Assembly (NCBI GenBank): GCA_025232375.1
Contig: CP060419.1
Coordinates: 2,851,001 to 2,915,000 of the forward strand
Reading direction: 5' to 3'
DNA length: 64,000 nucleotides
Source of the DNA: Pseudoxanthomonas sp. NC8
Lineage (GTDB): Bacteria > Pseudomonadota > Gammaproteobacteria > Xanthomonadales > Xanthomonadaceae
Positions 1 to 64,000 of the stretch are shown here, one piece after another. The first letter of the stretch is position 1. Each line of letters opens with the position of its first letter. A program made the position numbers and the translations under genes. The notes under the pieces are model-generated. The model saw only the letters and a program-made list of their open reading frames with translations. It was not told the DNA's origin and made no database searches.

Positions 1-209
1 AGCGGCAATACCAGCAGGGAATGGCTGAAGCTGCGGTGCGTCGTCATCTGCACCACCGGATCATCGTTGAAGGCCAGCAGCAGCAGCGCATCGAGGTCGG
101 GCAGCGTGCCCAGCGCGGCGCCGGCCAGCAACGCGGCGCGGCGATGCTTGGCAGGTGCGATCGCGGCCGCGACTGCGCCGCCAAGGACGATCTGGGTGAT
201 TGAATCCAT
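1..209 (-). CDS. YdjM-like membrane metal-dependent hydrolase (N-terminal part)
   Basis: Reading leftward from the ATG at 209, 69 codons are visible before the window edge. The start MDSITQ, the PDLD motif at residues 37-40 and the HRSFSHS motif at 57-63 are the signature of the YdjM / DUF457 family of inner-membrane, putatively metal-dependent hydrolases; the Asp and His residues would be the metal ligands. The physiological substrate of this family is unknown. The rest of the protein, including its membrane segments, lies outside the window. The gene follows the LpxH-like gene in the same direction after a 116-base gap. Confidence 0.75.
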   Translation of the reverse strand, partial: MDSITQIVLGGAVAAAIAPAKHRRAALLAGAALGTLPDLDALLLLAFNDDPVVQMTTHRSFSHSLLVLP

Positions 210-325
210 GGGGGCCGTGAGTGGGGAAAAAACCGGGGCAGTGTAGACCGGTCCCGCTGACTGGCTCCCGCGTGTCGGCCGGTCGAAACCGGGCCATGGG
301 GCAGCCCCCCAGTAACGCCGCGCGG

Positions 326-1141
326 CTACGCCACTTCCCGCAGTGCGTCGCCGGTCGCTGTCGCCCGCGGCAGGCGCGGCGGGAGTTCCGCTGGGATCTC
401 GCCGCGGTGGGAAAACCAGGCGCAGGGTACCGTCGGCTTCCTCGGCCAGTGCGGTCAGGCTTTCGACCCAGTCGCCGTCGTTGGCATAGACTAAGGCCGT
501 CGCGCTCGAACAGGCCGGCGCGATGGATGTGGCCGCAGACGATCCCGTCCAGGCCGCGCAGGCGCGCATCGTCGAATCCCGCCTGGACGAAGCGTCCGAT
601 GTAGCGTTCGGCCGCTCCGCTTCGCCGCTTCAGGTATTCGGCCAGCGACCAGTAGCGCAGGCCACAGGTGCGCCGCAGCCGGTTGACGAAGCCGTTCGCG
701 AGGAGGATGCGGTAGTACAGCCAGTCACCGAGCTTTTCCTGCACGTTGCCGAAGTGCGTGATGTTGTCGTAGTCGTCGCCATGGGTCACCAGCAGGCGGC
801 GGCCATCGGCGGTGACGTGGATCGCGCGGCGGCGGAGCTGCATGCCCGGCAGCATCAACCCGCAGAAGCGACGGATGCTGCGGTCGTGGTTGCCCGGCAC
901 GTACACGATCACCGTGCCGGCGCGGGCCAGCGCATGCAGGGCCTCGACCACGCGTTGCTGGGCGGCGCGCCGGGTGGCGCGGCGCTGGGCCATCCACCAG
1001 AAATCGACGATGTCACCGACTAAGGTAGAGCTGCCCGCAGCGCAACGTGCCGAGGAAGTCGGCCAGTTCGGCCGCGTGGCAGTGGCGCGAGCCGAGGTGG
1101 ACATCGGAGATGAAGACCGCGCGATGCCGGACCGGAAGCAT
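326..1141 (-). CDS. UDP-2,3-diacylglucosamine diphosphatase-like metallophosphoesterase (LpxH family)
   Basis: Calcineurin-like phosphoesterase of the LpxH/YbbF group (COG2908), which in lipid A synthesis removes UMP from UDP-2,3-diacylglucosamine at the inner membrane. Metal-ligand motifs appear in order: DVHLGS (about residue 13), GDIVDFW (about 50), PGNHD (about 85), THGDDYD (about 120) and CGHIHRA (about 200), followed by ANDGDWVES. The full protein needs three frame corrections: CCTGG read as CCTTAG at 1020-1025 and 491-496, and an extra C near 411. With these the reading ends at a TAG at 326, about 270 residues. This length fits a longer LpxH paralogue group seen in xanthomonads, so involvement in lipid A itself is less certain than the enzyme class. 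Confidence 0.8.
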
Positions 1142-1540
1142 CGCGACGGCCGGATTCACCGGACGGCTCCGCCGCCGGGTTCGGTGAAGGCCGCGGCCGG
1201 CACGGCGGGCACCGCCAACTGGAAACGGCGACCGGTTTCCGCCCGGCGCAGGCGCACCGGCACGGCATATTATGGCGCGAACGGCGCGGCGTGCCGATGG
1301 CGCGACCGGTCACGGGTCCGGGCGGGAATCCGGCGGCGTTCATGCAGTGGCCTCGATGCTGCGTCGGACGCGAGCGTGCGCCGGCCCGGCGACAACAACG
1401 TTGCAGGCCGGCTACGCCGGGGTGACGACGGCGGAGTGGCTTAACCGACGGTCAATCCGGGCCCGGCCACCATGCACCCCGTGCCGCACCCGTGTATCAT
1501 GCCCAGCCATCTTTTCATCCGCATACAAGGATATAGCCGC
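1142..1540. other. Intergenic region upstream of metK
   Basis: This 399-base gap separates the divergent LpxH-like gene and metK. Just before metK there is a ribosome-binding AAGGA about nine bases before the ATG, and a TATCAT at about 1496-1501 that could be a -10 box, giving a leader of only about 40 bases. That leader is too short for a SAM riboswitch, and I see no riboswitch core, coding potential or repeat elsewhere in the gap. Confidence 0.4.
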
Positions 1541-2761
1541 ATGTCCAGCTATCTCTTCACCTCCGAATCGGTCTCCGAAGGCCATCCGGACAAGATCGCC
1601 GACCAGATCTCCGACGCCGTCCTCGACGCCATCCTGGCGCAGGACAAGCGCGCCCGCGTGGCCTGCGAGACCCTGGTGAAGACGGGTGCGGCGATCGTCG
1701 CCGGCGAAGTGACCACCAGCGCCTGGGTGGACATCGAGGGCCTTAGCCCGCTCGGTGATCAACGACATCGGCTACAACAACTCCGACGTCGGCTTCGACG
1801 GCCATACCTGCGCGATCATCAACATGCTCGGCAAGCAGTCGCCGGACATCGCCGCCGGCGTGGACCGCAAGAAGCCGGAGGAACAGGGCGCGGGCGACCA
1901 GGGCCTGATGTTCGGCTACGCCTGCAACGAGGCCCCGGAATTCATGCCGGCGCCGATCTACTACTCGCACCGCCTGGTCGAGCAGCAGGCCAAGGTGCGC
2001 AAGAAGAAGAACTCGCCGCTGCCGTGGCTGCGCCCGGACGCCAAGTCGCAGGTCACCCTGCGCTACGACGACGCGCACAAGGTCGTCGGCTGGACGCGGT
2101 GGTCCTGTCGACCCAGCACGACCCGGGCGTGAAGCAGAAGGACCTGGTCGAGGGCGTGTACGAGCACATCCTCAAGCCGGTCCTGCCGAAGAAGTGGCTC
2201 GAGACGCTGCCGAAGAAGAAGGTCCACATCAACCCGACCGGCATTTTCGTGATCGGCGGCCCGGTGGGCGACTGCGGCCTGACCGGCCGCAAGATCATCG
2301 TCGACAGCTACGGCGGCATGGCCCGCCACGGCGGCGGCGCGTTCTCGGGCAAGGATCCGTCCAAGGTGGACCGTTCGGCCGCCTATGCCGCCCGCTACGT
2401 GGCCAAGAACATCGTCGCCGCCGGCCTTACCGACAAGTGCGAGGTGCAGGTCTCCTACGCCATCGGCGTGGCCGAGCCGACCTCGATCTCGGTCACCACC
2501 TTCGGCACCGGCCGCATCCCGGACGCGCAGATCGAGAAGCTGATCCGCAAGCACTTCGACCTGCGCCCGTACGGCATCGTCAAGATGCTCGACCTGATCC
2601 ACCCGGTGTACCAGCTGACCGCCGCCTACGGCCACTTCGGCCGCAAGCCGCAGCAGGTCAGCTACACCGACGGCGCCGGCAAGAAGCAGACCGCCACCGC
2701 CTTCTCCTGGGAGAAGACCGATCGCGCCGAGGCGCTGCGCGCGGATGCCAAGCTGAAGTAA
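1541..2761 (+). CDS. metK: S-adenosylmethionine synthetase
   Basis: Makes S-adenosylmethionine from methionine and ATP in the cytoplasm. Visible family signatures are [16 protein letters not shown] near the N-terminus, [13 protein letters not shown] in the middle, [13 protein letters not shown] and [16 protein letters not shown] in the C-terminal half. Length is about 406 residues, somewhat longer than the 384 of E. coli, as usual in xanthomonads. Two frame breaks must be bridged: CCTGG as CCTTAG at 1741-1746 ([16 protein letters not shown]), and CCTGG shortened to CTGG near 2090. The start has a good AAGGA ribosome site. SAH made by reactions using its product is handled by ahcY, also in this window. 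Confidence 0.95.
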
Positions 2762-2788
2762 GCGGCGCTCGCGCCGCGCTGCATGCGG

Positions 2789-2821
2789 AAAGGCCGCCCT
2801 TGGGGGCGGCCTTTCTGTTTT
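2789..2821 (+). terminator. Rho-independent terminator of metK
   Basis: An AAAGGCCGCC stem pairs with GGCGGCCTTT around a short TTGGG loop and is followed by CTGTTTT, 28 bases after the metK stop codon. Confidence 0.85.
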
Positions 2822-12120: not shown

Positions 12121-14699
12121 TCAATTCGCCGCCTGCGACCGCGTCGACGGGGCGTTGCGCACGTACTGCTGCAGCCAGTCGTCGGTCTCGGCGAGCATCT
12201 GCAGGATCGACTCGCGGGCGCGGTAGCCGTGCGATTCGTTGGGCAGCATCACCAGCCGCGCGTTGCCGCCCAGCCCCTTCACCGCGGCGAACATGCGCTC
12301 GCTCTGGATCGGGAAGGTGCCCGAGTTGTTGTCCTGCTCGCCGTGGATCAGCAGCAGCGCGTCCTTGATCCCGTCGGCGTGGTTGAACGGCGACATCGAC
12401 AGGTAGGTCTCCGGCGCCTGCCAGAAGTTGCGCTCCTCGGACTGGAAGCCGAACGGGGTGAGCGTGCGGTTGTAGGCGCCGCTGCGGGCGATGCCGGCCT
12501 TGAACAGGCGGGTATGCGCGAGCAGGTTGGCGGTCATGAACGCGCCGTAGGAATGGCCGCCCACCGCGACCCGCTGTGGATCGCCGACACCGCGACGGGC
12601 CAGCTCGTCCACCGCCGCCTGGGCGCTGGCGCTGAGCTGGGCGATGTAGGTGTCGTTGGGTTCGGCATCACCCTCGCCGACGATCGGCATCGACGGGTCG
12701 TCGAGCACGGCAAAGCCGCGGGTAGGAACGGCAGCGGCCCCCAGTAGCTGATCCGGTTGAAGCGGTACGGCGAATCGGTGACCTGGCTGGCCGCCTGCGC
12801 GGATTTGAACTCCTGCGGGTAGGCCCACATCAGCACCGGCAGCGGGCCATCGCGCCTTTGGCTGGCGTCGTAGCCGGCCGGCAGGTACAGCGTTCCGGTC
12901 AGCTCCACGCCGTCGGCGCGCGTGTAGCGGATCTGCTCCTTGCTCACCCCGCGCAGTTGCGGGGTCGGATGCGGGAAGCGGGTCAGCGCGCGCAGCGGAT
13001 CGGTCGCCGCGGTGTCGCGTACGTAGTAGTTGGTCGGATCGGTCGGCGATTCGCGGGTGAGGAGCAGGCGCGTGCCGCTGTCGTCCAGCAGGGCCTGCGG
13101 TGCCTCGTAGTGCGGCGCCTGCGAATGGAACAGGCGCTCGCTCTTGCCGCTGGTAAGGTCGTAGCGATCGACGAACGGACGATCGCCCTCGGCCGAGGCG
13201 CCCTCGCCGAGCCGGAACAGGCTGCCGCCGTCGGCGCTGGTCAGCAGGCGCGGCCGGCCGGCCGCGTCGGCCACGGTGACCGGCTGGCCCGGATCGGCGT
13301 AGCGGTCCTCGAAGGAGCGGTCGACCAGCAGCTGCGGCGCCTGCGCCGGCTGGTCCGGCTGGATGCGCCAGGTCCGGGTGCGGCGGGTCTTCCACCATGC
13401 CTCGTCGAGCAGGGTAAGGTCGCCACGGCCCCAGGTGATGCCTTCGTAACGCGAACCCAGTTCGGCCAGCTTCACCGGTGCGGCGGCGAACGGCGCGGCC
13501 TGCATGAACACCGCATCGCGCACCGCGACCTCGCGTGCCGGGTCGCCGCCGTCCTGGGCTTCGGCCCAGACCAGCGTGGCAGGTGCGTCGGCGCGCCACT
13601 CCACCGAACGCACGCCTGTGCGCACCGCGTCGTTGCCGATAGGAAGGCCCTCGACAAGTGGCTGCCGGTCCACGAGATGCCCGGTGCGACCGGTAGCTGC
13701 ATCGAGCACCTCGATCACGCGCGGGAACCAGGAGAACGGCACCAGATAGGAGAACGGGCGCTCGACCCGTTGAGCCAGCACGTGCCGGCCATCGGGTGAC
13801 AGCGACGTCCATGTGTACATCGAGGGTGCGCCGATGCGCTTGATCCTGCCCTGCAGGTCTACGCGTGCCAGCTGCGAGGAAAGGTAGTGCTCCAGCGTCA
13901 GCGCATCGGCTTCATTGCGCAGCAGGTCCAGAGTAGGTACGCACCGCGCGTACGCCGGCGCCGGCCTCGGTTTGCTGGACGCTGGGCCCGGTCGGAACCG
14001 CATCGGCCGGCGGCAGCGCAACCGCCCCGTCCGCCTGCAACCGTACCAGCAGGCCATTGCTGTCGGGCTGCCAGCTCCAGCTGAGGCCACCGCCGGCTAC
14101 CGTATTGAGATCCGTTGCCAGTCGGCGGGCAGTACGCGCGGCCACGTCCACCAGCCACAACTCGTTGGCCCCGCTGGCGCGGTCGATCCGGTTGAAGGCG
14201 ATGTGCCGCTGGTCCGGCGACTAAGGCCATGCCGGTAAGGCCCAGCGGCTGCGGCAGGCCAGTGATGCGCCGCTCGCCGCCGCTGGCCACGTCCAGCAGC
14301 CACAGGTCGCTGCCGAACGCGAACTGGCTGGAGGCATGCACGCGCGGATGGAAACGCAGGCCGGCCAGCTTCAGCTCGGGCTGGGCAACGACGTCGATCC
14401 CGGGCAGGTCGGGCATCTGTACCAGCGCGGTAAGGTCTCGACGCGGCGACAGGGTCAGTTGCGGCGCGCGCGGCGCATCGACGATCGCGCGAAGTTCGGC
14501 GACCGGCTCGCGGTAGGTGGAGGCGGCAGCGCCGACGGGCGCCTGGGCGCGGGCTGGCCCGCTGCCACCCCGAGCCAGCGCGGCCAAGGACCAGCAGCAA
14601 CGGCAGCCGGGCGGCGCCGGCCACGCCGGCACCCGGGTGCCCGGAGCGCGGCGCGCGCGGCGCGGCACCCTCGGGACGGAAGGTCTTCATTGCAGGCAT
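12121..14699 (-). CDS. S9D-family prolyl oligopeptidase-like glutamyl endopeptidase
   Basis: About 860 residues: a long N-terminal segment with a hydrophobic stretch ([13 protein letters not shown]), a beta-propeller region with SPDGRHVLA-type repeats, then an alpha/beta-hydrolase domain. The catalytic triad is visible: Ser in [10 protein letters not shown], Asp in [11 protein letters not shown] and His in [10 protein letters not shown]. The stretches around it ([21 protein letters not shown]) match the glutamyl endopeptidase subgroup, S9D. It is probably exported and degrades peptides. ATG 14699 is preferred for its AAGGGA site; 14690 is an alternative. Breaks, all on CCWGG: 14584-14589, 14221-14226, near 13932 and near 12731. 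Confidence 0.85.
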
Positions 14700-14997: not shown

Positions 14998-16441
<1,444 letters not shown>

Positions 16442-29972: not shown

Positions 29973-31833
29973 ATGGAATCCGGCCTGACCCTGACCAACG
30001 ACATGCGCCTGGTGCTCGGGCTGGTCGGGTTCACGATGGCCATGTTCCTGTTCGAGCGCATCCGCGCCGACCTTAGTCGCGCTGGTCGTGCTGGTCGTGC
30101 TCGGCGTCACCGGACTGATCGCGCCGGAAGAGATCTTCAGCGGCTTCTCCGGCAACGCGGTGATGAGCATCATGGCGACCATGATCCTCGGTGCCGGGCT
30201 GGACCGCACCGGCGCGCTGAACCGACTCGCCGGCTGGCTGCTGCGCCGCGGCCACGGCAAGGAGCAGCGCCTGCTGGCGCTGACCTCGCTCACCGCCGGC
30301 CTCAATTCTTCGTTCATGCAGAACCCGTCGGTGATGGCGTTGTACCTGCCGGTCGCCGCGCGCCTGTCCGGACGCAGCGGACTGTCGATGAAGCGGCTGC
30401 TGCTGCCGCTGACCGCCGCCATCGTGATGGGCGCGGCGCTGACCATGGTCGGCAACTCGCCGCTGATCCTGCTCAACGACCTGCTGCTGTCGGCCAACAA
30501 CAACCTCCCCTCCGGCACGGCCACGCTCGAGCAGCTGCCGATGTTCGCCCCGGCCCCGGTGGGCGTGGTCCTGCTCGCCGCCGCGCTGCTCTACTTCCAC
30601 TTCTACGGCAACCGCAAGCTGGCCGAACTCGAGGACGGCGGCGGCGAGAACGTGACCCCGGCGCGCACGGACAGCTACTTCGCCCGCACCTACGGCATCG
30701 AAGGCGACGTGTTCGAGCTGGTGGTCAGCGCGGAGAGCCCGCTGGTCGGCATGTCGGTGTCGGAGGCCGAATCGATGCACGATGCGCCGCTGCTGCTGGC
30801 GCTCAAGTCCGGCAACGACACCCGGCTGGCGCCGTCGGCGGACATGCGCATCTGGGTCGGCAGCGTGCTCGGGGTGATGGGACCGCGCCAGCAGGTCGCC
30901 GACTTCGCACAGAACCATTTCCTGCGCATGTCCTCGCGGCTGCGCAACCTGGGCGACCTGTTCAACCCGGCGCGCGCCGGCATCTCCGAAGCGGTGGTGC
31001 CGCCGACCTCGCGCTTCATCGGCAAGAGCGCACGCGAACTGCGCCTGCGCCGCCAGGCCGGGATCAGCCTGCTGGCGATCAACCGCGACAAGCAGGTGAT
31101 CCGCGACGACGTGCGCTCGATGCCGCTGCGCGCCGGCGACATGCTGGTGTTCCACAGCATCTGGCAGGACCTGGCGCGCGCGGCCGGTAGCCGCGACTTC
31201 GCCGTGGTCACCGACTACCCCAAGGGCGAGCAGCGTCCGCACAAGTTCAAGATCGCCATGGCGATCTTCGCGATCACGATAGTCATTGCGCTGACCGGCA
31301 AGCTGCCGGTCGCGCTGACCCTGATGACCGGCGTGGCCGGCATGCTACTGGCCGGCGTGCTGAAGATGGACGAGGCCTACGCGGCGATCAACTGGAAGAC
31401 GGTGTTCCTCACCGCCGGGCTGATCCCGCTGGGCTGGGCAATGGACAGCAGCGGCGCGGCGGCCTGGGTCGCCGGCCATACCCCTGGACAAGCTGCCCGA
31501 CGGCACGCCGCCCAGGTGCTGCAGATCGTGGTGGCGCTGCTGACCACCGGCTTCTCGCTGGTGATCAGCCATGTCGGCGCGACCATCGTGATGGTGCCCA
31601 TCGCGATCAACCTGGCGCTGGCAGTGGGCGGGGAGCCGACCGCATTCGCGCTGATCGCCGCGCTGTCGGCCTCCAACAACCTGATGACCGCCTCCAACCC
31701 GGTGATGTCGATGATCACCGGCCCGGCCGACTACTCGGCGCGCGACCTGTGGCGGATCGGCGCGCCGCTGTCGCTGATCTACACCGTGATCGCCGTGGTC
31801 GTGGTCAACCTGATGTTCTGGGGAGCGCACTGA
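29973..31833 (+). CDS. SLC13/DASS-family permease with two RCK-C domains
   Basis: About 620 residues, an inner-membrane anion:sodium symporter of the sulfate/dicarboxylate group. Hydrophobic helices flank FSGNAVMSIMATMILGAG, and SSFMQNPSVMALYLPVAAR is the first ion/substrate loop. Two TrkA-C/RCK-C segments occupy the cytoplasmic middle (GDVFELVVSAESPLVGM; SEAVVPPTSRFIGKSARELR). The second membrane half has GATIVMVPIAINLAL and SASNNLMTASNPVMSM. The first 30 residues are in another frame because CCTGG reads CCTTAG at 30071-30076. Substrate cannot be assigned from sequence. Confidence 0.88.
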
Positions 31834-35458: not shown

Positions 35459-37496
35459 ATGCAGCCGCAGCACCGCGCCACCGTGTCCACCCTGCTGTTC
35501 GCACTGGCGCTCCTGCTGTCACCGGCGCGCGCGCAGGCCGCGACATCCGCTCCGCTGCAGCTGCGCTCGCCCGGCGGCAATGCACAGGTCGAACTGTCGC
35601 TGGATGCGGAGGGCCGCGCCCACTACGCGGTGGCCTGGCGTGGCAAGCCGCTGCTGCTGCCATCGCCACTGGGCGTGCAGCTGGATGAAAACGACCTGAT
35701 CGAACGCGGGCTGCGGGTGGTCGACGTGCGCCGCAGCCAGGCCGACGGCACCTATGAACTGGTTGCCGGCAAGACCCGCCAGGCGCGCGACCACTACCGC
35801 CAGCTGGAAGTGGACCTTGGCCGACGCACGCGGCCGCACGCTGGGCGTGGTCGTGCGCGCCTACGACGACGGCATCGCCCTGCGCTACCGCCTGCCGCTG
35901 CCGGCACAGGGCGAGCTGCAGGTGAAGGAAGACCTGACCGGCTTCCTGTTCCCGCGCGACTACGCCTGCTGGGCGCTCAACCTCGGCCGCTTCGGGACCA
36001 GCCACGAGGGCGAGTACGACCCGATCGCCGCATCGAAGCTGCGGCCGATGCAGCTGGTCGAACTGCCGCTGGTCTGCGGCACCGGCGAAGGCACGGCCAG
36101 CTTCGCGATCACCGAAGCCGACCTCGACGACTACGCCGGCCTCTACCTGAGCGGCCGCGGCGATGGCCGCCTCGGCGTCGAAGCCCGGCTCTCGCCGCGG
36201 CTCGACACGCCGCAGCTGGCGGTACGCCTGCCGCGCGGCGAGGTCGCACCGGCCGGCCACCTGACGCCGTGGCGCGTCCTGCTGCTCGGCGACAGTCCCG
36301 GGGCGCTGGTCGAATCCAACCTCATTTCCAGCCTCAACCCGCCCACGCCCATCGCCGACACCTCCTGGATCCGGCCGGGCAAGACCGCGTGGGACTGGTG
36401 GTCGGGCGGCCTGGCGCCCGATGTCGCCGACGCCGGCATGAACACCGCGACGATCAAGCGCTACATCGACCACGCCGCGGCGCTGAAGCTCGAATACATG
36501 CTGATCGACGACGGCTGGTACGTCGGCAGCACCAGCAACGGCCACTACAACGCCGATGCCGACATCACCCGCCCGATTCCGGTCCTCGACCTGCCGGCGG
36601 TGATCGCCTACGCGCGCGAGCGGGGCGTCGGCATCTGGCTGTGGGCGCACTGGAAGTCGCTGGCGCCGCGCATGGACGAGGTCTTCGCCCGGTACCGCGA
36701 CATGGGCATCCGGGGCGTCAAGGTCGACTTCATGGACCGCGACGACCAGGAAATGGTCGCGTTCTTCCACAAGATGATGCGCAGCGCCGCCGACCACCGG
36801 CTGATGCTGGACCTGCACGGCGCCTACCGGCCGACCGGGCTCAACCGCACCTTACCGAATTTCCTCACCCGGGAGGGCGTGCTCGGCGCCGAGTACAACA
36901 AGTGGAGCCGGCGGATCACGCCGACCCACAACGTCACCCTGCCGTTCACCCGTATGCTGCTCGGGCCGATGGACTACACGCCGGGCGGGTTCCGCAACAT
37001 GACGCCGGAACAGTTCCAGGTGTCCTTCAACGGCCCGCAGGTGATGGGCACGCGCGCGCACCAGCTGGCGATGTTCGTCGTCTACGAGAGCGGGCTGCAG
37101 ATGGTCGCCGACAGCCCGGACGTCTACACGGACGGGAAGGGCGGCCTCGCCCCCGGCGCCGATTTCCTCTCGCTCGTGCCGGCCCGCTGGGATGAAACCC
37201 GGGTGCTGGCCGGCGAGATCGGCCAGTACATCGTTGTCGGCCGGCGCAGCGGCCGCGACTGGTACATCGGCGCGATGACCAACGAATCGCCGCGCACGCT
37301 GCAGGTGCCGCTGGATTTCCTGCCCGCGGCCGATTACGCGGCCACGCTGTGGCGCGATGGCGATGCACCGGCCGACGTGCGCCGCGAGCAGCTGCGCATC
37401 GATGCGCACAACCGCACGCTGGAACTGGTGCTGTCCGGCGGCGGTGGCGCCGCGGCGCAGCTGATCGCACCGTCGCCGAGGATCGCCGGGCGCTAG
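35459..37496 (+). CDS. GH97-family glycoside hydrolase
   Basis: About 679 residues, exported (signal peptide ending AQA). An N-terminal beta-sandwich (SPGGNAQVELSLDAEGRAHY) is followed by the barrel: KTAWDWWSGG, YMLIDDGWYV, GVGIWLWAHWKS, GIRGVKVDFMDRDDQEMV and MLDLHGAYRPTG, then a C-terminal domain. GH97 has inverting alpha-glucosidases and retaining alpha-galactosidases; the Asp in VKVDFMD lies where the nucleophile of retaining members is reported, so alpha-galactosidase is my preferred guess. One CCTGG-to-CCTTGG error at 35815-35820. The start has GAGGAG; the stop overlaps the convergent gene's stop in CTAG. Confidence 0.9.
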
Positions 37497-38368
37497 CGGC
37501 GATCGCGCGCGGCCCAGCGGGCAAGCAGCACCGCGGTGGCCGCGGCCACGTTGAGGCTCTCCACCGCACCGCTGCCGGGGATCGACAGGCGCCGGTCGCA
37601 GGCGGCGGCAAGCGCCGCATCCATGCCCTCGCCCTCGGCGCCCATCACATAGACCAGGCGCGGTGCGGGCGGCGCCGCGAACAGGTCGTCGCCACCGCGC
37701 ACGACGGTGGCGGCCAGGATGAAACCGGCCTCGCGCAGCCGCGCCAGTGCTACCGTCGATTCCGGCAGGCGCACCAGCGGCACCGCTTCGGCGCCACCCT
37801 CCGCCACGCGCGCGGCGGCACCCGACAGCGACAGCGGCGAGCGCGCCGGCAACAGCACCGTCGCGCCGAAGTGCGCGGCCGAACGCAGGATCGCGCCGAA
37901 GTTGTGTGGGTTGCCGACGCCGTCCAGCCAGATCGCCAGCGCCGGCCCGGCCGGGCCAAGCTGCTGCAGCCAGTCGGACAGCGGCTGCGGCTCGATGCGC
38001 AGCACGTCGGCGACCACGCCTTCGTGGTGCGCGCTGGCGGCCAGCCGTTCCAGGTCCTCCTCCTCGACCACGCGATAGCCGATGCGATGCTTCACGCACT
38101 AAGGCCAGCAGCGGCTTGAGCGCCGGGATGCGCGCTTCGAGCAGGTAGACCTTGCGGATCGCCTCGGGTCGCCGCGCGAACACGGCGTTCACCGCGTTCA
38201 GTCCGTACAGGCGCAGTTCGTCGCGGTGCGCCGGACGCGGCGCGTCGCTGCCGGCGGCCGGACGCTGGGCCGCCTCGGGCCTTGGCTCGCGCCGCACCGG
38301 TGGACGCGGCGCACGCGGCGGACCGCCCGATGGACCACGCGGCGGACGGTTGTCCAGGGACCAGCCAT
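37493..38368 (-). CDS. TrmH/SpoU-family RNA 2'-O-methyltransferase (RlmB-like)
   Basis: About 291 residues. A Pro/Arg-rich disordered N-terminus (first 55 residues) precedes the substrate-binding ELRLYGLNAVNAVFARRPE and the SPOUT domain: LDGVGNPHNFGAILRSAAHFGA (motif 1), LVYVMGAEGEGMD (motif 2), LSIPGSGAVESLNVAAATAVLL (motif 3, knot). These residues place it with RlmB, which methylates G2251 of 23S rRNA. Repairs: CCTGG as CCTTAG at 38099-38104, and a G missing from CCTGG near 38356. Confidence 0.88.
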
Positions 38369-39094: not shown

Positions 39095-42000
39095 GGCCGC
39101 CGACCGGTGGAACTTCCGCATCCAGTTTCGCCAGCTCGTGCGCCACGGCGTCCGGCGAACGCGTATAGGGCGCCAGCAGCGCGTAGAACGCCGGCACCAC
39201 GAACAGCGACAGCAGGGTGGAGAAGGCAACGCCGAACACGACCACCACGCCGATCGATTCGCGGCTGGCCGCGCCGGCGCCGCTGGACAGCATCAGCGGG
39301 ATCGCGCCGCAGATCATCGCCACCGAGGTCATCAGGATCGGCCGCAGGCGTACCGCCGAGGCCTCCACGATCGCCTCGCCCACCGCCATGCCCTCGTCGC
39401 GCAGCTGGTTGGCGAACTCCACGATCAGGATGCCGTTCTTGGCCGCCAGGCCGACCAGCATGACGATGCCGATCTGGCTGTAGAGGTTCAGGCTCGCCCC
39501 CAAATGGACAGGCCGAGCAGCGCGCCGAGCATGGCCAGCGGCACGGTCAGCATGATCACCAGCGGATGCAGGAAGCTCTCGAACTGGCCGGCCAGCACCG
39601 GGAATACGACCAGCAGGGCCATGCCGAAGGTGAAGAACACCGCGCCGCTGGACTTCATGAACTCGCGCGATTCGCCCTTGTAGTCGATCTGCGCCTCCGG
39701 CGGCAGCTCCTCGGCGGCGATCCCGCGCAGGTACTCCAGCGCTTCGCCGACGGTGTACCCCGGCGCTAAGGCCGGCGCTGAGCGTGATCGCGCGCATCCG
39801 GTTGAAGCGGCTCAGCGTGCCGGCTTCGGCGTATTCGGTCAGCCTGACCAATGGGTTGGACAGCGGGATCAGCTGGCCGGTGGTCGTCGAACGCACGTAC
39901 AGGCCGGCGATGTTGCCCATGTCGCGCCGGTTCTCCAGCGGCGCCTGCATGATCACGTAGTACTCCTCGCCATCCTTCTCGTAGGTACCGGCGCGCAGCG
40001 AGCCGAGCATGGTCTGCAGCGTGCTGCCGATCGCCTGCACCGGAACGCCGAGGTCGGCGGCGCGGTCCTTGTCGATCTCGACGCGGACCTGCGGCAGCGT
40101 TTCCTTGTAGTCGGAATCCACGTTCAGCAGGCGCGGGTTCTCCTCCATGCGCGCCAGCATGCGGTCGCGCCAGCGGCGATGGTTTCGTAGGTCGGGCCGC
40201 GCAGCACCAGCTGCACCGGCCGCCCGCCGCTGCGCACCAGCCTGGCGCACGTCGGCGGTGATGCGCACGCCGGGGATGTCGGCCAGCGCGTTGCGCACCT
40301 CCTCCATCACCTCCTGCGTGCTGACGTCGCGCTGCTCCCACGGCTTCAGGAACAGCGTCGCGCGGCCGGTATTCATCGCCGCGGCCTGGCCGCCGAAGCC
40401 GCCGGGCACGCGCACGATCACGCGCGAGACCGGCCCGTTGTCGCTGCTGTAGGCCAGCAGGCGCTTCTCGATCACGTCCATCTGCGTGACCATGTAATCG
40501 AAGCCCGCGCCTTCCGGCCCGGAAACCGAGACGTTGAAGTCGCCGCGATCCTCGGCCGGAGCCAGTTCCGACGGCACCAGCCGGAACAGCAGGCCGCTGG
40601 CGACGAAGGTCGCCAGCATCGCGGCGGCCAGCAGCCAGCCGCGCCCGATCACCTTGCCGACTAAGGCCGCGATACCAGCCGGTCAGCGTGTCGAGGCAGC
40701 GGTTGACCCAGCTGTTGAACCCCTTGCGGTGCGTGTGCGGACGCAGCAGGATCGAGCACATCATCGGCGTCAGGGTCAGCGCGACGAAGCCGGAGATCGC
40801 CACCGCGCCCGCCACCGCCACCGCCAGCTCGCGGAACAGGCGCCCGGTGTTGCCTTCCATGAAGGCGATCGGCAGGAACACGGCGATCAGCACCGCCGTG
40901 GTCGCGATCACCGCGAACGCGACCTGGCGCGTGCCTCGCTGCGCGGCCAGCAGCGGCGGCTCGCCCAGGGTCGGTGCGGCGCTGGCAGTTCTCCAGCACC
41001 ACGATGGCGTCGTCGACCACCAGGCCGATCGACAGCACCAGCGACAGCAGGGTGAGCTGGTTGATCGAAAAGCCGCAGGCGTACAGCGCGATGAACGCCG
41101 CGGTGATGCAGACCGGCACGGTCACCGCCGGGATCAGCGCGGCGCGTACGCTGCCCAGGAACACGAACACCACCAGCAGCACCAGCACGATCGCTTCGGT
41201 AAGGGTGGCGTAGACCTCGTGCACGGCCGCATCGGTGAACACGGTCGAATCGTAGGCCGCGGTCAGCTGCATGCCTTCCGGCAGCGTCGGCGACACCCGC
41301 TCGACCAGGGCGCGGACGTTGTGCGACACCGCCAGCGAATTGGCGGTGGAGGTGGCGACGATGGTAAGGCCGATCTGCGGCACGCCGTTGCCGTGGTAGA
41401 ACGCGCGGCGATCTTCCGAGGCCAGCTCGACCCGGGCCACTTCGCCGGGGTGATGACGTGGCCGTCGCTGCCCTTGCCGACCACCAGCCCCGCGAAGCTC
41501 TCCGGCGTCTGGTAGCCGCGCATCACCCGCAACGCGAACTCCCGGGTTTCCGATTCGATGCTGCCGCCGGGCAGTTCGATGTTCTCGCGGCGCAGCGCGG
41601 TGCCGATGTCGTCGGCGGTCAGGCCGCGCGCGCTCAGCGCCTGCGCGTCCAGCCAGACCCGCATCGCATAGCGCTGGCCACCGCCGATGAACACCGTCGA
41701 TACGCCGTCGATCGAGGAAAACTGGTCGACCAGGTTGCGGTCTGCGTAGTCGGTCAGCTGCTCGGCGCCCATGCCCGGGGCGCTGAGGTTTAGGAACATG
41801 ATCGGCGAGGAGTCGCTGTCCTGCTTGGCCACCTGCGGCGGGTCGACGTCCTCGGGCAGGCGGTTGGACACGCGGCTGATCGCGTCGCGCACGTCGTTGG
41901 CCGCGCCTTCGATGTCGCGGGTCAGGGTGAAATCGATGTTGATGTCCGAACGGCCGTTGCGGCTGGTCGCGGTGATCAGGTCGACGCCCTCGATGCCGCT

Positions 42001-46498: not shown

Positions 46499-48348
46499 AT
46501 GACCGCTGCGCCCACCGCGCTGCCCCCAGCCCCTCAACGAGGACCGCAAGGTCCTGCTGGGCCGGCTGGTCGACGGCCTCGACGGCCCGTCGCTGTGGTG
46601 GCTGTCCGGATATACGGCGGGCCTTATAGCCGAGCCCATGCCAGCCCGCAGCTGGCGGTGCTGCCCGGTGGCGGTGCCGCCGCCCCCCAGCCTGGCCAGC
46701 GCCTGACCGTGCTCTACGGCAGCCAGACCGGCAATGCCCGGCGCGAGGCCGAGAAGCTGGTCCAGGCCGCCGAGGCCGCCGGCCTGGCCGTGCGCCTGGT
46801 CCGCACCGATGCCTACCAGACCCGCGAGCTGGCCAGCGAACGCCTGCTCTACGTGGTGATCAGCACCGGGGCGAAGGCGATCCGCCGGACGACTCGATCG
46901 GCTTCACCGAATTCCTGCTGGGCAAGCGCGCCCCGAAGCTGCCGGAGCTGAAGTTCGCCGTGCTCGGCCTGGGCGACACCAGCTATGCCGACTTCTGCGG
47001 CATCGCCCGCAAGCTCGACGCCCGCCTGTCCGAGCTGGGCGGGCAGCGCATCGCGGACGTGGGGTAAGGCCGACCTGGACATCGATACCGTCGCCGGTCC
47101 GTGGCGCGAGAGCGCGCTGGCCCGGGCCCGCGAGCTGCTCAAGGCCGCGCCGGTCGCCGCTGCGCACCTGGCCACGGTCACCCCGCTGCGCGCGGTCTCG
47201 CCCTGGTCGCACGAGCGCCCGTTCCCGGCCGAGGTGCTCGCCAACCAGCGCATCAGCGGCCGCGAGTTCAAGAGCGTGGGCTTCCTGCAGTACGGCCCGG
47301 TCGACAAGGACGTGCGCCACCTCGAGCTGTCGCTGGAAGGTTCCGGCCCTGGCCTACGAGCCGGGCGATTCGCTGGGCATCCGCCACCGCAACCCGCCGG
47401 CGCTGGTGGAGGCCGTGCTCGAGGCCACCCGCCTGGACGGTCACGCGACGGTCACCTCCGGCGAGCAGACTCTGCCCCTGTCCGAGTGGCTGGCCACCCG
47501 CCGCGAGTTGACCCGGCTGTCGCGCCCGTTATGGCCGCGCATGCCGAGCGCACCGGTGCGGCGGCCCTCAAGCAGCTGCTCGACCCCACCCAGTCCGCCG
47601 GGTTTGGCCGCGCTGCTGGCCGACCACCAGCTGGTGGACGTGCTGCGCAGGTGGCCGGCGGATTGGGACCACGACGGACTGGTGGCGGCGCTGCGTCCGC
47701 AGGCCCAGCGCCTCTATTCGATCGCCTCCAGCCGCAAGCGCGTGGGCGAGGAAGCGCACCTGACCGTCGACGTCCTCAACTACCACGCCCATGGCCACGA
47801 CCACGGCGGCGCCGCCAGCGGCTTCCTCGCCGCGCTGGACGAGGGCGGCCAGGTTCCGGTCTACATCGAGCCCAACGAGCGCTTCCGCGTTCCGGCCGAC
47901 GGCAGCCGCGACATCATCATGGTCGGCCCGGGTACCGGCGTGGCCCCGTTCCGCGGCTTCGTCCAGGAACGCGCCGAAACCGGTGCCTCCGGCCGCAACT
48001 GGCTGTTCTTCGGCGCCCAGCATTTCAATACCGGCTTCCTCTATCAGGTCGAGTGGCAGGACGCCCTGCAGCGCAAGGAATTGCACCGCCTCGACCTTGG
48101 CCTTCTCCCGCGATAAGGCCGCCAAGGTCTACGTCCAGCAGCGCCTGCGCGAGCGCGGCGCCGAGGTCTACGACTGGCTGCAGAACGGCGCGCACTTCTA
48201 TGTCTGCGGTGCGATCGCGATGGGCAAGGACGTGCATGCCGCGCTGCTGGACATCGTCGCCGCGCACAACGGCGGCGATGCCGAAGCCGCCGCCGAATAC
48301 CTGACCCGCCTGCAGACCGAAGGCCGCTACGGCCGCGACGTCTACTGA
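46499..48348 (+). CDS. cysJ: Sulfite reductase [NADPH] flavoprotein alpha subunit
   Basis: About 616 residues. Transfers electrons from NADPH via FAD and FMN to CysI. N-terminal flavodoxin domain: [19 protein letters not shown] and [19 protein letters not shown] domain with [15 protein letters not shown] domain with [30 protein letters not shown] and the C-terminal GRYGRDVY with terminal Tyr. Many frame breaks, including near 46532, 46625, 46870, 47065, 47345, 47535, 47605 and 48095-48100, most at CCTGG. Start chosen at ATG 46499. Confidence 0.93.
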
Positions 48349-48393: not shown

Positions 48394-50125
48394 ATGAGCC
48401 ACCCTTCCGTCGAAGACATCAAGATCAAGAGCCGCGGCCTGCGGGGCACGCTGCTGGAAGGGCTGGCCGACCAGGTCACCGGCTCGCTGTCGTTCGAGGA
48501 CCAGCGCCTTGGTCAAGTTCCACGGCACCTACCAGCAGGACGACCGCGACATCCGCGACGAACGCCGCCGGCAGAAGCTCGAACCGGCGCACCAGTTCAT
48601 GATCCGGATCCGCGCCCCAGGCGGCGTGTTCACCCCGGAGCAGTGGCTGAAGCTGGACGCCATCGCCACCACCCACGCCAACCACTCGCTGCGCGTCACC
48701 ACCCGGCAGACCTTCCAGTTCCACGGCGTGATCAAGCGCGAGCTGAAGGCGACGATGCAGGCGATCAACGCCGCCGCGCTGGACACGGTCTCCGCCTGCG
48801 GCGACGTCAACCGCAACGTGCTCGGCGCCAGCAACCCGCTGCAGTCGCGCCTGCACGCCGAAGTGCACGCGTGGGCCGGCCGGTTGTCCACCGAATTCCT
48901 GCCGACCACCCGCGCCTACTACGAGATCTGGCTGACCATGGGAAAAGCTGGCCGACAGCGGCGAGGAGGAAGACCCGATCTACGGCAAGGTCTACCTGCC
49001 GCGCAAGTTCAAGATGGCCGTGGCGGTGCCGCCGGTCAACGACGTGGACATCTTCGCCAACGACTTCGGCCTGATCGCCATTGTCGGCGAAGACGGCGGC
49101 CTTAGCCGGCTTCAACGTCACCATTGGCGGCGGCATGGGTGCCGCCCATGGCGATGCCAAGACCTATCCGCGCCTTGGCCGACGTGATCGGCTTCGTCAC
49201 CCCCGATAAGGTGCTGGCGATCGCCGCCGCCGCGGTGACCGTGCAGCGCGACCATGGCGACCGCGTCGAGCGCAAGCACGCGCGCTTCAAGTACACCATC
49301 GACCCAGGCTGGAGGTCGTGGTCGCGCAGATGGAGGAACGCGCCGGCTTCAAGCTGCAGCCGGCCCGCCCGTTCCATTTCGAGCACAACGGCGACCGCTT
49401 CGGCTGGGTCGAGGGCGAGGACGGGCGCTGGCACCTGACCCTGTCGCTGCCGTCCGGCCGCATCGCCGACCGTCCCGGCGCGCCGCACCTGAGCGGCCTG
49501 CGCGAGATCGCCAACGTACACCGCGGCGAATTCCGGGTGACCGCGAACCAGAGCCTGGTGATCGCCGGCGTGCCGGCCGGCGAACGCAAGCGCATCGACG
49601 CGCTGGTCCAGTCGCACGCGCTGGACCGCGAGAACGGCGCCCCGACCGCGCTGGCGCGTACCGCGATGGCCCCTGCGTGGCGCTGCCGACCTGCGCCCCT
49701 GGCCATGGCCGAGGCCGAGCGCTACCTGCCCGACTTCAGCGCCAGGCTTGAGCCGCTGCTCGACCGCCACGGGCTGCGCGAGGCGCCGATCCTGCTGCGC
49801 ATCTCCGGCTGCCCGAACGGCTGCTCGCGTCCGTACCTGGGCGAGATCGCCCTGGTCGGCAAGGCCCCGGGCCGCTACAACCTGATGCTGGGCGCCGACC
49901 ATCGCGGCCAGCGCCTGAACACGCTGTACCGCGAGAACATCAACGAGGCCGAGATCCTCGCCGCGCTCGAGCCGCTGTTCGCGCAGTACGCCGCCGGGCG
50001 CCAGCCGGAGGAGCACTTCGGTGACTTCCTGCATCGCGCCGGCCTGGTCGCGCTGCCGCCCTATCCCACCCACGTCCATGGTCGAGCCGGTGAGCAAGAA
50101 AGCCGCGCTTGGCGAGGCCGCCTGA
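48394..50125 (+). CDS. cysI: Sulfite reductase hemoprotein beta subunit
   Basis: About 577 residues. Reduces sulfite to sulfide at a siroheme coupled to a 4Fe-4S cluster. Visible: [35 protein letters not shown] (sulfite-binding Arg), [12 protein letters not shown], and the two Cys pairs that bind the cluster, CVALPTC near residue 430 (frame-split near 49672) and [15 protein letters not shown]. The corrected end is [11 protein letters not shown]. Breaks: 48507-48512, near 48942, 49100-49105, 49173-49178, near 49310, 49672 and 50078. Operon with cysJ (45-base gap). Confidence 0.94.
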
Positions 50126-60250: not shown

Positions 60251-60255
60251 CGGGT

Positions 60256-60726: not shown

Positions 60727-60744
60727 GGGTGCATAGGATATAGA

Positions 60745-60881: not shown

Positions 60882-62208
60882 TCAGGCGGCGGCCATGAAG
60901 GCCTCGATCCCCTCGGCCGAACGCACCAGCGCGTCGGTCAGCACCTTGTGGCCGTCGCGGGTGACTAGCACGTCGTCCTCGGTGCGGATGCCGATGCCGC
61001 GCCACTTCGCGTGCACCGAGGCGTCGCCGGCACCGACGTACAGGCCCGGCTCGATGGTGAAGACCATGCCGGGCTCGAGCAGGCGCGGTTCGCCGTCGAT
61101 CCGGTAGTCGCCGACGTCGTGCACGTCCAGCCCCAGCCAGTGGCCGCTCTTGTGCCGGCAGAAGCGCGTGTAGTGGCCGTCGGCGATGTTCTTTTCCAGC
61201 GAGCCCTTGAGCAGCCCCAGCCTGAGCAGGCCTTCGGTCAGTGCTTCCACCGCCGCCTCATGGATCGCCGATAAGGCCACGCCCGGCCGCGCGCAGGCCA
61301 GCGCCGCCGCCTGCGCCGCGCCGACCAGGTCGTGCAGGGCGCGCTGCTCCTGGAGAAGCGGCCATTGACCGGGAAGGTGCGGGTGATGTCGGCCGCATAG
61401 CCGCGGTATTCGGCGCCGGCATCGATCAGGACCAGGTCGCCATCGGTGGCGCGGGCGTTGTTGGCCACGTAGTGCAGCACGCAGCCGTTGGCGCCGGCGC
61501 CGACGATGCTGCCGTAGGCCGGGCAGGCGTCGGCGGCGCGGAACACGCGCTCGACCTCGGCCTGAAGTTCGTATTCGTGGATGCCGGGACGCGCGGCGCG
61601 CATCGCCGCCTGGTGGGCATGCACGCTGATCTCGGCCGCCTTCTGCATCAACCGCAACTCGTCGCGCGACTTGAACAGGCGCTGCTCGTGCAGCAGATGG
61701 CCCAGCTCGAGGAATTCATGGGGCGGCTGCGCGCCGTGGCGCACCTGCGCGCGCACGCGGTTGACCCATCCGATCAGCTTGAGGTCGAACTCGGCGTCGC
61801 GGCCGAAGTGGTAGTAGACCCGCGAACGCCCTTCCAGCAGGCCGGGCAGGATCTCGTCGAGGTCGTCGATCGGGTAGGCGTCGTCCATGCCGAACGCCTC
61901 GACCGCGCCTTCCTGGCCGGCACGCGCGCCGTCCCAGCCCTCGCGCTCGGGATCGCGCTCGCGGCAGAACAGCAGCGCCTCGCCATGCTTGCGCCCCGGC
62001 ACCAGCACCAGCACGGCTTCCGGTTCGGGGAAACCGCACAGGTACCAGAAACCGAATCCTGCCGGTACGGGTAGTGCGTGTCGTGGCTGCGCACCCGCAC
62101 CGGCGCAGCGGGCAGGACCAGGATCGCGTCCTCGCCAGCCATCCGCATCAGCTGGCGGCGGCGGCGCGCGAACTCGGCCGAGGTGATCCCGGTGAGCGAA
62201 CGCAGCAT
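60882..62208 (-). CDS. pepP: Xaa-Pro aminopeptidase (aminopeptidase P)
   Basis: About 442 residues. It removes N-terminal residues before proline, with two Mn ions. N-terminal domain: FARRRRQLMRMAGEDAILVLP, HDTHYPYRQDSGFWYLCGF. Catalytic pita-bread domain: IVGAGANGCVLHYVANN, LVLIDAGAEYRGYAADITRTFP (two Asp), CRHKSGHWLGLDVHDVG (His), GMVFTIEPGLYV (Glu) and RGIGIRTEDDVLVT (Glu). Breaks near 62056 and 61350. The ATG follows the UPF0149 stop by one base. Confidence 0.94.
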
Positions 62209-62209
62209 G

Positions 62210-62762
62210 TCAGTTCAGGCTGCGGCGATGGCGCGGACCGAGCACGCAGTCGCCATGCAGCAGCAGCACGGCGACGCGGACGAACTCCTCGAGTTCGGAG
62301 AGGGCGTCCTCGTCCTCGTCTTCGTCCTCGTCGATTTCCTGCACGCTGGCGCCGGCCAGGCTGGGCCAGGTCCTGCAGGGCCTCGGCGCCCTCCTCCGAC
62401 AGTGGCGGCTGTGCGCCGGCGGCCTGGGCCGAAACCGCCGAGGAAACTGCGGCACCAGTCGAACAGCGCCTGGGCGCGCTCGCGCAGCGGCAGGTCGTCC
62501 CCGCCAAGCAGCAGTTCAAACGTGAACTCGCCATCGCCGAGCTGGCCGACCGACACCTTGCGCAGGCGGTCCAGCGCGCTGCGCAGGCGCGGGCGCGGGC
62601 ACGCTGGCGTCGGCAAGCACCCGTGCCGGCTAAGGCCACGGTGTCCTCGCCGCCGCCCGCCAGCCAGCCACACAGGGCGCCGTGCAGTTCGGGGACCGTG
62701 GCCCCTGGGGCCAGCGCACGGCTGGCGTCGGCGACTTCTTCGGAAGCGGGGAGGTGGGACAT
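62210..62762 (-). CDS. UPF0149/YecA-like protein
   Basis: About 184 residues. Starts MSHLPASEEVADASRALAPG, then ELHGALCGWLAGGGEDTV, LRKVSVGQLGDGEFTFELLLGGDDLPLRERAQALFDWCRSFLGGFG, an acidic run of alternating Glu and Asp (EIDEDEDEDEDALSELEEF) and VRVAVLLLHGDC. Helical protein of unknown function, conserved upstream of pepP in gammaproteobacteria, as here. Breaks near 62633 (CCTTAGCC), 62435 and 62365, each at a CCWGG. Confidence 0.85.
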
Positions 62763-62921
62763 GCGTGGCACGGCTGGTTGCGGTTGATCCGGCAAAGTGT
62801 AGCGCCCTGCCCGGGCCGCTTGTCGCCGTTCCCCGCCGCCGCCTACACTCGCGAAAACAACCTTCCGCGTCCATCCCATGCCGTCCGACGTCGCTGTGCG
62901 ATACCGCCAGACAGGACCAGA

Positions 62922-64000
62922 ATGGATGGGCCATCCATGACCGCCGCATTGATGGCGTTCGCCGGCGGGCTGCTGATCGCCGTGCTCGTGCTGCTCGTCC
63001 GCTGGCGTGGCAGCCATATGCGCCAGCACGCGGCGCTGCAGGCACGCGAGGAACACCTGACCGTCGCGCTGTGGGGCTCGGGCGAGCAGTTCTGGGATTT
63101 CGACTGGAACACCGCGAGCTGTACCTGCTGCAGGCCGACGAGTCGGGCGCCGATCTGGGCCTGGTGGTCGCCAGCCCGCCAAGATCGCTGCCGGTGGTCC
63201 ATCCGCACGACCGCGCCAGCCTGCGGCGCCGCTTGCGCGCGCACCTGCGCGGCCATGACTCCCTGTTCACCTCCGAGCACCGTGTCGATCCGGACGGCGA
63301 CGGCAACTGGATCTGGATGCGCGTGCACGGCCGCACCGTCCAGCGCGACGACCGCGGCCGGCCACGGCGCCTGGCCGGCACCGCGCGCGACACCACCGCC
63401 AACCGGCATGCCGACGCCGAGCGGCGCATCGCCAGCGAGGTGCTGCGCAGCATGAGCGAGGCGGTGGCGGTGCTCGACCGCGAACTGCACTTCGTCGCGG
63501 TCAATCCCGCCTTCACCCAGATCACCGGCTACAGCGACGTGGAGGCGCTGGGCAGGCCATTCACCATGCTCGACAGCGACGGCGACGGTCGCGGTGGCGC
63601 CCTGCTTGCGGACATGAACCGCCAGCACTGGCAGGGCAACGTGTGGATGACCCGCCGCGATGGCGAGGAGATCCTCTGCCACGTCAAGCACAACGGCATC
63701 CCCGACGCCGGCGGCGACGTGAACTTCCACGTCGTCGTGCTCAGCGACATCACCGAGCAGAAGCGCGCCGAGCAGGAGCTGCGCTACCTTACCAACTACG
63801 ATGCGCTGACCAGCCTGCCCAACCGCTCGCTGCTGTCCGAGCGCCTGGCCCGGGCGATCGTGCGTGCGCGCCGCGAAGGCGGCCACGTCGCCGTGCTGTT
63901 CCAGACCTGGACCGGTTCAAGGACGTCAACGATTCGCTCGGCCATGCCACCGGCGACCGGGTCCTGCGCGCCGCCGCCGAACGCGTGCAGCACGCGGTGG
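62922..64000 (+). CDS. PAS-PAS-GGDEF signalling protein (N-terminal part)
   Basis: Runs off the right edge; about 355 residues visible. One N-terminal membrane helix (ALMAFAGGLLIAVLVLLVRW), a PAS fold with WDFDWN..ELYLLQADES and SEHRVDPDGDGNWIWMRVHGR, a second PAS (SEVLRSMSEAVAVLDRELHFVAVNPAFTQITGY) and the linker YDALTSLPNRSLLSERL that begins a GGDEF domain. It would turn over cyclic di-GMP; an EAL domain beyond the edge is likely. Breaks near 63115 and 63905, the latter a CCTGG. Confidence 0.8.

What the first reader, a model, noticed from the sequence alone, without database searches (positions are those of the whole stretch)
1..64000. Frameshifts concentrate on CCWGG sites: a base-modification read artefact, and evidence of a CCWGG methylase
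CCTGG (or CCAGG) should stand at nearly every place where a conserved gene loses its frame. Written as CCTTAG (or its complement CTAAGG): 491-496, 1020-1025, 1741-1746, 14221-14226, 30071-30076, 38099-38104, 39766-39771, 40661-40666, 49100-49105, and CCTAAGG at 16015-16021. Written as CCTTGG/CCAAGG: 5175, 8279, 10743, 11372, 14584, 19170, 24669, 26148, 26836, 32373, 35815, 44818, 48095, 48507, 49173, 51179, 53283. Other sites lose or gain one C or G beside the pentamer. The flanking amino acids restored by CCWGG match the known family in each case. The sharing of one palindromic site by unrelated genes cannot be pseudogenisation; it points to a modified cytosine (Dcm-like) read badly by a single-molecule method, and so to a CCWGG methyltransferase outside the window. 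That many other CCWGG sites are correct fits partial polishing.
Basis: partly seen in the sequence, partly recalled or inferred. Interest (0 to 1): 0.9.

Follow-up and report, generated by a model that had tools for sequence, protein, structure and literature searches.

The report
Sequencing errors at methylated CCWGG sites
Most of the broken genes in this stretch of bacterial chromosome look like misreadings at one short DNA word, CCAGG/CCTGG, that the bacterium probably marks chemically; this is a known sequencing artefact, and the genes that probably make the mark lie elsewhere in the same genome.

Summary
Of the 27 listed sites, 25 could be aligned to relatives; all 25 have a gap there and 23 have CCWGG in at least one relative. 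At CCWGG conserved in two relatives, this genome has an indel at 87 of 413 sites; a control relative has 0 of 164. By z-score CCWGG is the most depleted pentamer (642 against 1041 expected). Of 178 frame losses called by at least two relatives, 130 lie at CCWGG, against a baseline of 17.9%. "Nearly every" is too strong: about three quarters do.

A new argument against a biological origin: the errors follow the contig strand. GGTAAGGC occurs 648 times forward and 88 reverse, with the same sign along the chromosome.

The predicted methylase is found about 330 kb away: a Vsr, a C5 cytosine methylase and an MvaI/BcnI-family endonuclease. A congener with the same locus lacks the signature. The phenomenon is known for nanopore assemblies (PMC6591954). 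The read technology and the mark itself could not be tested.

The parts
1..64000 (.). Whole window: CCWGG is depleted and replaced by a small set of miscall strings; genes are fragmented at these places
   Evidence: 286 CCWGG in the window, i.e. 4.5 per kb, against 6.5-7.6 per kb in stretches of three congeners; 79 of 101 frame losses called by at least two relatives in the window lie at a relative's CCWGG, baseline 18.9%
16015..16021 (.).
38099..38104 (.).
35815..35820 (.).
48095..48100 (.).

Best explanation
The chromosome is methylated at CCWGG, most likely as 5-methylcytosine. It was sequenced as native DNA by a single-molecule method, most likely nanopore, with a base-caller that had not learned the mark, and was assembled without enough short-read correction. 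On the strand read as C-mC-A-G-G the modified dinucleotide is miscalled, giving mainly TAAGG (same length) and also CCAAGG, CTAAGG and one-base losses or gains. The errors that change length break the reading frames. Shown here: the concentration at CCWGG, the error spectrum, the contig-strand bias and the presence of a C5-methylase locus. Inferred: the sequencing method, the chemistry of the mark, and that the Vsr - C5 methylase - MvaI/BcnI-family endonuclease locus at chromosome positions 2,517,369-2,520,359 writes it.
For: By z-score CCAGG/CCTGG is the most depleted pentamer in 144 kb compared with stretches of three relatives (642 against 1041 expected); CCTTA and CCTTACC are in excess (116 against 10, 58 against 3). 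Indel rate at CCWGG is 14-17%, against 1.2-3.2% in three pairs of relatives. At conserved CCWGG, 87/413 indels against 0/164 in the control genome, and TAAGG 27/413 against 0/164. Frame losses run at 2.40-2.56 per kb against 0.32-0.60 in six comparisons among relatives; 130/178 robust ones lie at CCWGG, baseline 17.9%. Outside +-8 nt of CCWGG the indel rate equals that of the control genome (2.3-2.4% against 2.5%). Contig-strand bias: GGTAAGGC 648/88 and GGCCAGGC 183/406 genome-wide, while 16 congeners are near balance for GGCCAGGC and have 2-23 GGTAAGGC per strand. TAAGG is 367/87 in a 544-kb sample, more on + in 28 of 28 segments, with no flip where GC skew changes sign. Locus: Vsr, C5 methylase in three pieces, MvaI_BcnI endonuclease E=1.5e-62 with best PDB match R.MvaI. 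No other C5 methylase match and no N6_N4_Mtase match in the genome (frame losses may hide genes). Precedent: about 70% of consensus errors at CCAGG/CCTGG in a Klebsiella nanopore assembly (PMC6591954, passages seen).
Against: No reads, no platform record and no methylation data were available. 48 of 178 robust frame losses have no CCWGG in any relative that called them; 21 of the 48 have a run of four or more identical bases. With a third reference, CAGGG (9 of 31) slightly exceeds CCAGG (30 of 110) in indel rate, and with G008 three other pentamers outrank it. CCSGG is mildly raised (15/206 against a background of 3.8%; 11/184 away from CCWGG against 2.3%), though 0/46 with three references. 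Two flank contexts, TCCAGGA and TCCAGGT, show no indel in 33 sites. The assigned methylase is itself broken in the assembly; of the four frame losses in its locus shared by all three intact homologues, only one has a signature string beside it, and one other has CCWGG in one homologue. R.MvaI itself cuts DNA carrying 5-methylcytosine at CCWGG (PMC10305163 table), so a C5 methylase does not obviously protect against this endonuclease.
Confidence: 0.9

Rival explanations
1. Real genome decay: the genes are true pseudogenes and the CCWGG link is chance or a mutational hotspot.
For: Frame losses are many (2.4-2.6 per kb) and 48 of 178 have no CCWGG link.
Against: One pentamer accounts for 73% of robust frame losses against a 17.9% baseline. 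The changes favour one contig strand along the chromosome without flipping where GC skew changes sign, which a living genome should not do because contig orientation is arbitrary.
Confidence: 0.02
2. Biology of the mark itself: deamination of 5-methylcytosine, Vsr repair or selection against CCWGG by the restriction system removed the sites.
For: CCWGG is depleted and a Vsr and an MvaI/BcnI-family endonuclease are encoded. In congener G006 the 9-kb stretch around its own copy of the locus has only 4.1 CCWGG per kb.
Against: Congener G006 carries the same V-M-R locus yet has 1050/1095 GGCCAGGC genome-wide, like the others, and no GGTAAGGC excess (16/8). Deamination would give C-to-T at one position, not TAAGG, CCAAGG or one-base gains and losses. 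The contig-strand bias is not expected.
Confidence: 0.03
3. A base-caller or polisher defect at CCWGG that needs no methylation.
For: Only sequence context is observed; no methylation data exist. The contig-strand bias shows that the consensus step contributes.
Against: Published default base-callers failed at CCWGG because of Dcm methylation and were repaired by training on methylated DNA (PMC6591954, passages). The genome has one detected C5 methylase locus, with an endonuclease whose best PDB match is R.MvaI, a CCWGG cutter. The look-alike CCSGG is much less affected (15/206 and 0/46 indels).
Confidence: 0.05

Closest known systems
Dcm-site consensus errors in Oxford Nanopore assemblies (PMC6591954, 2019; passages seen)
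   Same: Errors concentrate at CCAGG/CCTGG, make up about 70% of consensus errors there (73% of robust frame losses here), and arise with native methylated DNA and default models.
   Different: The likely writer here is a restriction-modification methylase. I found a strong contig-strand bias and a dominant TAAGG miscall; the passages that I saw describe neither.
Modification-mediated nanopore errors at other motifs (PMC10687267 passages; PMC11610573 passages)
   Same: A strain-specific modification lowers assembly quality at a short motif; the second paper reports strand-dependent base ratios in the reads.
   Different: Motifs GCAGC and GCTGG in the first, RACG/CGTY in the Klebsiella outbreak of the second, not CCWGG; the strand dependence there is in reads, here in the finished contig.
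MvaI/BcnI-family Type II restriction-modification systems (PF15515; R.MvaI, R.BcnI)
   Same: The endonuclease matches PF15515 over its full length (E=1.5e-62); best PDB match R.MvaI (1.8e-5), then R.BcnI (0.034).
   Different: It is paired with a C5 cytosine methylase and a Vsr. Published MvaI cuts m5C-modified CCWGG (PMC10305163 table), and M.MvaI makes m4C by recall, so this pair may not simply copy MvaI.

Membership tests
Nanopore CCWGG (Dcm-type) consensus artefact | Errors concentrated at CCAGG/CCTGG rather than at CCSGG | tested here: met
   87/413 indels at conserved CCWGG against 0/164 in the control genome; CCSGG 15/206 against 2/84, and 0/46 with three references. CCSGG is mildly above background with two references
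Nanopore CCWGG (Dcm-type) consensus artefact | Errors independent of gene and of biological strand | tested here: met
   28 of 28 segments (544 kb of 3.54 Mb) have more TAAGG on the contig + strand, with no flip at GC-skew change; GGTAAGGC 648/88 genome-wide
Nanopore CCWGG (Dcm-type) consensus artefact | The motif accounts for most consensus errors | tested here: met
   130/178 robust frame losses, 79/101 in the window; outside CCWGG the indel rate equals the control
Nanopore CCWGG (Dcm-type) consensus artefact | Native DNA read by nanopore, base-caller not trained on the mark | not testable with these tools
   No reads or method record; 57% completeness in a single contig fits an uncorrected long-read assembly
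Nanopore CCWGG (Dcm-type) consensus artefact | Methylated cytosine at CCWGG | not testable with these tools
   Only the gene locus and the error footprint are available
MvaI/BcnI-family restriction-modification system | Endonuclease of PF15515 | tested here: met
   212 bits against a cut-off of 25, profile positions 1-227 of 227
MvaI/BcnI-family restriction-modification system | Methylase gene adjacent | tested here: met
   C5 methylase pieces directly upstream; 36 of 49 named endonuclease loci also have a C5 methylase match within 2 kb
MvaI/BcnI-family restriction-modification system | Endonuclease cuts CCWGG (MvaI) rather than CCSGG (BcnI) | not testable with these tools
   Sequence prefers R.MvaI weakly (27.7 against 16.9 bits); the error footprint points to W
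E. coli Dcm orthologue | Match to NCBIfam NF007772 (PRK10458) above cut-off 710 bits | tested here: inconclusive
   Two of the three methylase pieces score 32.2 and 18.3 bits, the third is not listed; fragments cannot reach the cut-off, and the intact homologues were not scanned
Vsr very-short-patch repair endonuclease | PF03852 / TIGR00632 match | tested here: met
   Two overlapping pieces, 61.4 and 36 bits (Pfam cut-off 27), 46.9 and 82.7 bits (TIGR00632 cut-off 97.85, not reached by either piece alone)

The most novel reading that the evidence does not exclude
The error footprint in a finished assembly works as a rough methylome. It assigns CCWGG to a V-M-R locus in which an MvaI/BcnI-family endonuclease is partnered by a C5 cytosine methylase and a Vsr. 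Since MvaI itself is not blocked by m5C at CCWGG, this endonuclease must have become sensitive to m5C, or the methylase marks a different position or makes a different mark. The contig-strand bias of one miscall string would then be a reference-free flag for finding such genomes, and the specificity of their methylases, in public databases.
Probability: 0.45. Interest if true: 0.5.

Novelty: already known. Interest (0 to 1): 0.33.

Why it matters
Frame losses in this genome should not be read as pseudogenes, gene loss or programmed frameshifts, and its 57% completeness should not be taken at face value. The damage also includes length-preserving double substitutions (TAAGG for CCAGG), which survive a check that looks only for indels and would put false amino acids into proteins. 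The strand bias of these strings can be measured in one assembly without reads or relatives, so it could flag other such records and suggest methylase specificities.

Tried and rejected
Considered and rejected: pseudogenisation; deamination or site avoidance; replication-strand or gene-strand effects (the strand bias does not flip with GC skew); a CCNGG site (CCSGG is at most mildly raised); an m4C methylase of PF01555 (no match). A longer recognition sequence is not favoured: indels occur in 14 of 16 flank combinations; TCCAGGA and TCCAGGT have none in 33 sites, so a context effect exists and a narrower site is not strictly excluded. A second modified motif is not seen: after removing +-8 nt around CCWGG the overall indel rate equals the control; the leftovers (CCCG 32/554, CCTTC 11/117, AAGGC 9/97, GCCCC 5/35, CCCGG 11/184) are small.

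Expected but not found: I expected TAAGG to make many false in-frame stops. Of 9 in-frame stop places called by at least two relatives, 0 carry the signature and 5 have CCWGG in a relative. The endonuclease gene is an exception: its open frame starts right after a TAA inside a TAAGG string. I also expected the methylase gene to be broken at its own sites; one search does not show this. A search of plasmid records with the endonuclease gave 13 records, all under 60% identity; not pursued. Structure prediction was not used.
Full report
What was checked. The window is positions 2,851,001-2,915,000 of a single 3.54-Mb contig with an estimated completeness of 57%. Three congeners, G001, G002 and G008, at 83.7-89.4% mean DNA identity over the aligned parts, cover most of the window and its flanks. 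They serve as references and also as controls for one another; how they were sequenced is not known.

The listed sites. All 27 strings are present, one of them one base earlier than stated. 25 of 27 could be aligned. All 25 have a gap in the alignment and 23 have CCWGG in at least one relative; 1741 and 24669 do not, and 5175 and 8279 have no aligned relative.

More than chance. Without choosing sites, CCAGG/CCTGG is by z-score the most depleted pentamer in 144 kb of this genome against 283 kb of the three relatives (642 against 1041 expected). Strings in excess include CCTTA (116 against 10), CCTTACC (58 against 3), CCTTAG (21 against 1.5) and CCAAGG (138 against 80.5). The indel rate at the relatives' CCWGG is 42/247, 123/826 and 94/693, against backgrounds of 3.05%, 4.7% and 4.8%; it ranks 1st of 193, 1st of 356 and 4th of 325 pentamer classes with at least 60 occurrences. 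In three pairs of relatives it is 9/733, 8/253 and 7/271. Where two relatives agree on CCWGG, this genome has 87 indels and 164 substitutions at 413 sites; the control genome G001 has 0 indels and 56 substitutions at 164. CCSGG gives 15/206 and 2/84 indels, so it is mildly above this genome's background of 3.8%; with three agreeing relatives it is 0/46. With three agreeing relatives CCWGG shows 30 indels and 25 substitutions in 110; there CAGGG, which overlaps the site, is slightly higher in indels (9/31).

Share of the frame losses. A frameshift-tolerant codon alignment of relatives' genes finds 232, 200 and 77 frame losses in this genome (2.56, 2.46 and 2.40 per kb), against 0.32-0.60 per kb in six comparisons among relatives. 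Merged by place they form 262 clusters, of which 178 are called by at least two relatives. 130 of the 178 have CCWGG in a relative within 21 nt (window: 79/101; called by all three: 52/64). The 84 clusters called by one relative only, 17 of them with CCWGG, were left out. The baseline is 17.9% (window 18.9%, three relatives 19.7%). Of the 48 without CCWGG, 21 have a run of four or more identical bases. Away from CCWGG the indel rate is that of the control genome (2.3-2.4% against 2.5%). The true share may be higher, because relatives do not keep every CCWGG (inference).

What the sites become. Oriented as CCAGG, the 413 conserved sites read CCAGG 162, TAAGG 27, CGAGG 25, CCAAGG 13, CCAGC 12, CCACG 12, CCAG 11, CCATG 10, CCGGG 9, CCAGGG 8 and smaller classes. 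CGAGG, CCAGC and CCACG are also frequent in the control and are ordinary divergence. TAAGG, CCAAGG, CTAAGG, CCAG and CCAGGG are each 0 of 164 in the control. Between 3/11 (TCCAGGA) and 12/13 (CCCAGGG) of sites are changed, by flank; the control changes 56/164 over all flanks. Indels occur in 14 of 16 flank combinations; TCCAGGA and TCCAGGT have none in 33 sites. I read this as context-dependent misreading of one site, CCWGG, rather than as partial polishing or a longer site; a narrower site is not strictly excluded.

The strand bias. GGTAAGGC occurs 648 times on the forward and 88 on the reverse strand of the contig; 16 congeners have 2-23 per strand, and the reversed control pattern in this genome is 72/64. 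The expected parent string GGCCAGGC is 183/406 here and 752-1265 per strand, near balance, in 16 congeners. In a 544-kb sample (15% of the genome: 24 stretches of 20 kb and the window in four parts) TAAGG is 367/87, with more on + in 28 of 28 segments, while GC skew changes sign along the chromosome; CCTTGG/CCAAGG leans the other way (295/193). A bacterium cannot know which strand an assembler printed. A bias that keeps its sign round the chromosome is therefore a product of consensus making. I infer that reads of the two strands misread the modified site differently (CC*AGG as TAAGG, CC*TGG as CCTTGG) and that the consensus favoured reads in forward orientation. This step is inference.

The writer of the mark. 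A whole-genome search for C5 cytosine methylases finds three pieces, all at one place, 2,517,855-2,519,093. Just upstream is a Vsr in two pieces (2,517,369-2,517,588). Just downstream is an endonuclease of the MvaI/BcnI family (ORF at 2,519,595-2,520,359; PF15515, E=1.5e-62; best PDB match R.MvaI 1.8e-5, then R.BcnI 0.034). A second, sub-threshold Vsr piece follows on the other strand. No PF01555 match was found. Frame losses may hide other methylases from such searches. Intact homologues of the trio in the same order exist in congener G006, in Stenotrophomonas daejeonensis (L069) and in Lysobacter penaei (L070). PF15515 occurs in 3 of 17 genomes of the genus: this one, G006 and, more distant, G002. 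G006 carries the trio and shows neither the GGTAAGGC excess nor the loss of GGCCAGGC, although the 9 kb around its own locus has only 4.1 CCWGG per kb; possession of the genes alone does not damage a sequence. In this assembly all three genes are broken (four frame losses shared by three intact homologues). I cannot show that these breaks are at CCWGG: one has a signature string beside it and one other has CCWGG in one homologue.

Comparison with print. PMC6591954 (2019, passages seen) reports that the then current nanopore base-callers with default models put about 70% of the consensus errors of a Klebsiella genome in CCAGG/CCTGG, which its authors take to mean that the models had not learned Dcm methylation. 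Two later papers report modification-linked errors at other motifs (PMC10687267 and PMC11610573, passages seen). The kind of thing is known. Literature searches were made, in the held library only and listing 14 of 14, 15 of 37, 12 of 41, 4 of 4, 15 of 158 and 12 of 446 papers; for most of these I saw only title and start of abstract. None was aimed at this genome, whose name I do not have. Among the listed titles I saw none on a Vsr - C5 methylase - MvaI-type trio; this is not a claim that none exists.

Open point. MvaI cuts CCWGG whichever cytosine carries m5C (restriction-enzyme table of PMC10305163, passage seen), and its own methylase makes m4C (recalled). A C5 methylase beside an MvaI/BcnI-family endonuclease is nevertheless common: 36 of 49 named endonuclease loci have a C5 methylase match within 2 kb, and 6 of 49 have a Vsr match. 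Either these endonucleases differ from MvaI in sensitivity, or the mark differs from Dcm's.

Noticed in passing
G000:C1:2520364-2520468 (-), L027:5299-5652: A second, partial Vsr match on the opposite strand directly after the endonuclease (26.2 bits by genome search, below the cut-off of 27), next to a weak, sub-threshold UvrD-like helicase C-terminal match at L027:5755-6669.
   Followed up: no
Window and L028-L031, L049-L068 (544 kb of G000): CCTTGG exceeds CCAAGG on the contig + strand (295/193), opposite in sense to TAAGG (367/87).
   Followed up: partly
L069-L117: 36 of 49 named loci with a relative of the MvaI/BcnI-family endonuclease have a C5 cytosine methylase match within 2 kb; 6 of 49 have a Vsr match.
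   Followed up: partly
G000 endonuclease gene, L027:4542-4546: An in-frame TAA inside a TAAGG string interrupts the endonuclease frame, which is open through this part in three homologues.
   Followed up: partly
Conserved CCWGG sites in 144 kb of G000: TCCAGGA and TCCAGGT show no indel in 33 sites while the other 14 flank combinations do; the reason is unknown.
   Followed up: no
window:25962-26032 (-): The only Rfam match in the window at gathering score is one tRNA (71.1 bits).
   Followed up: no
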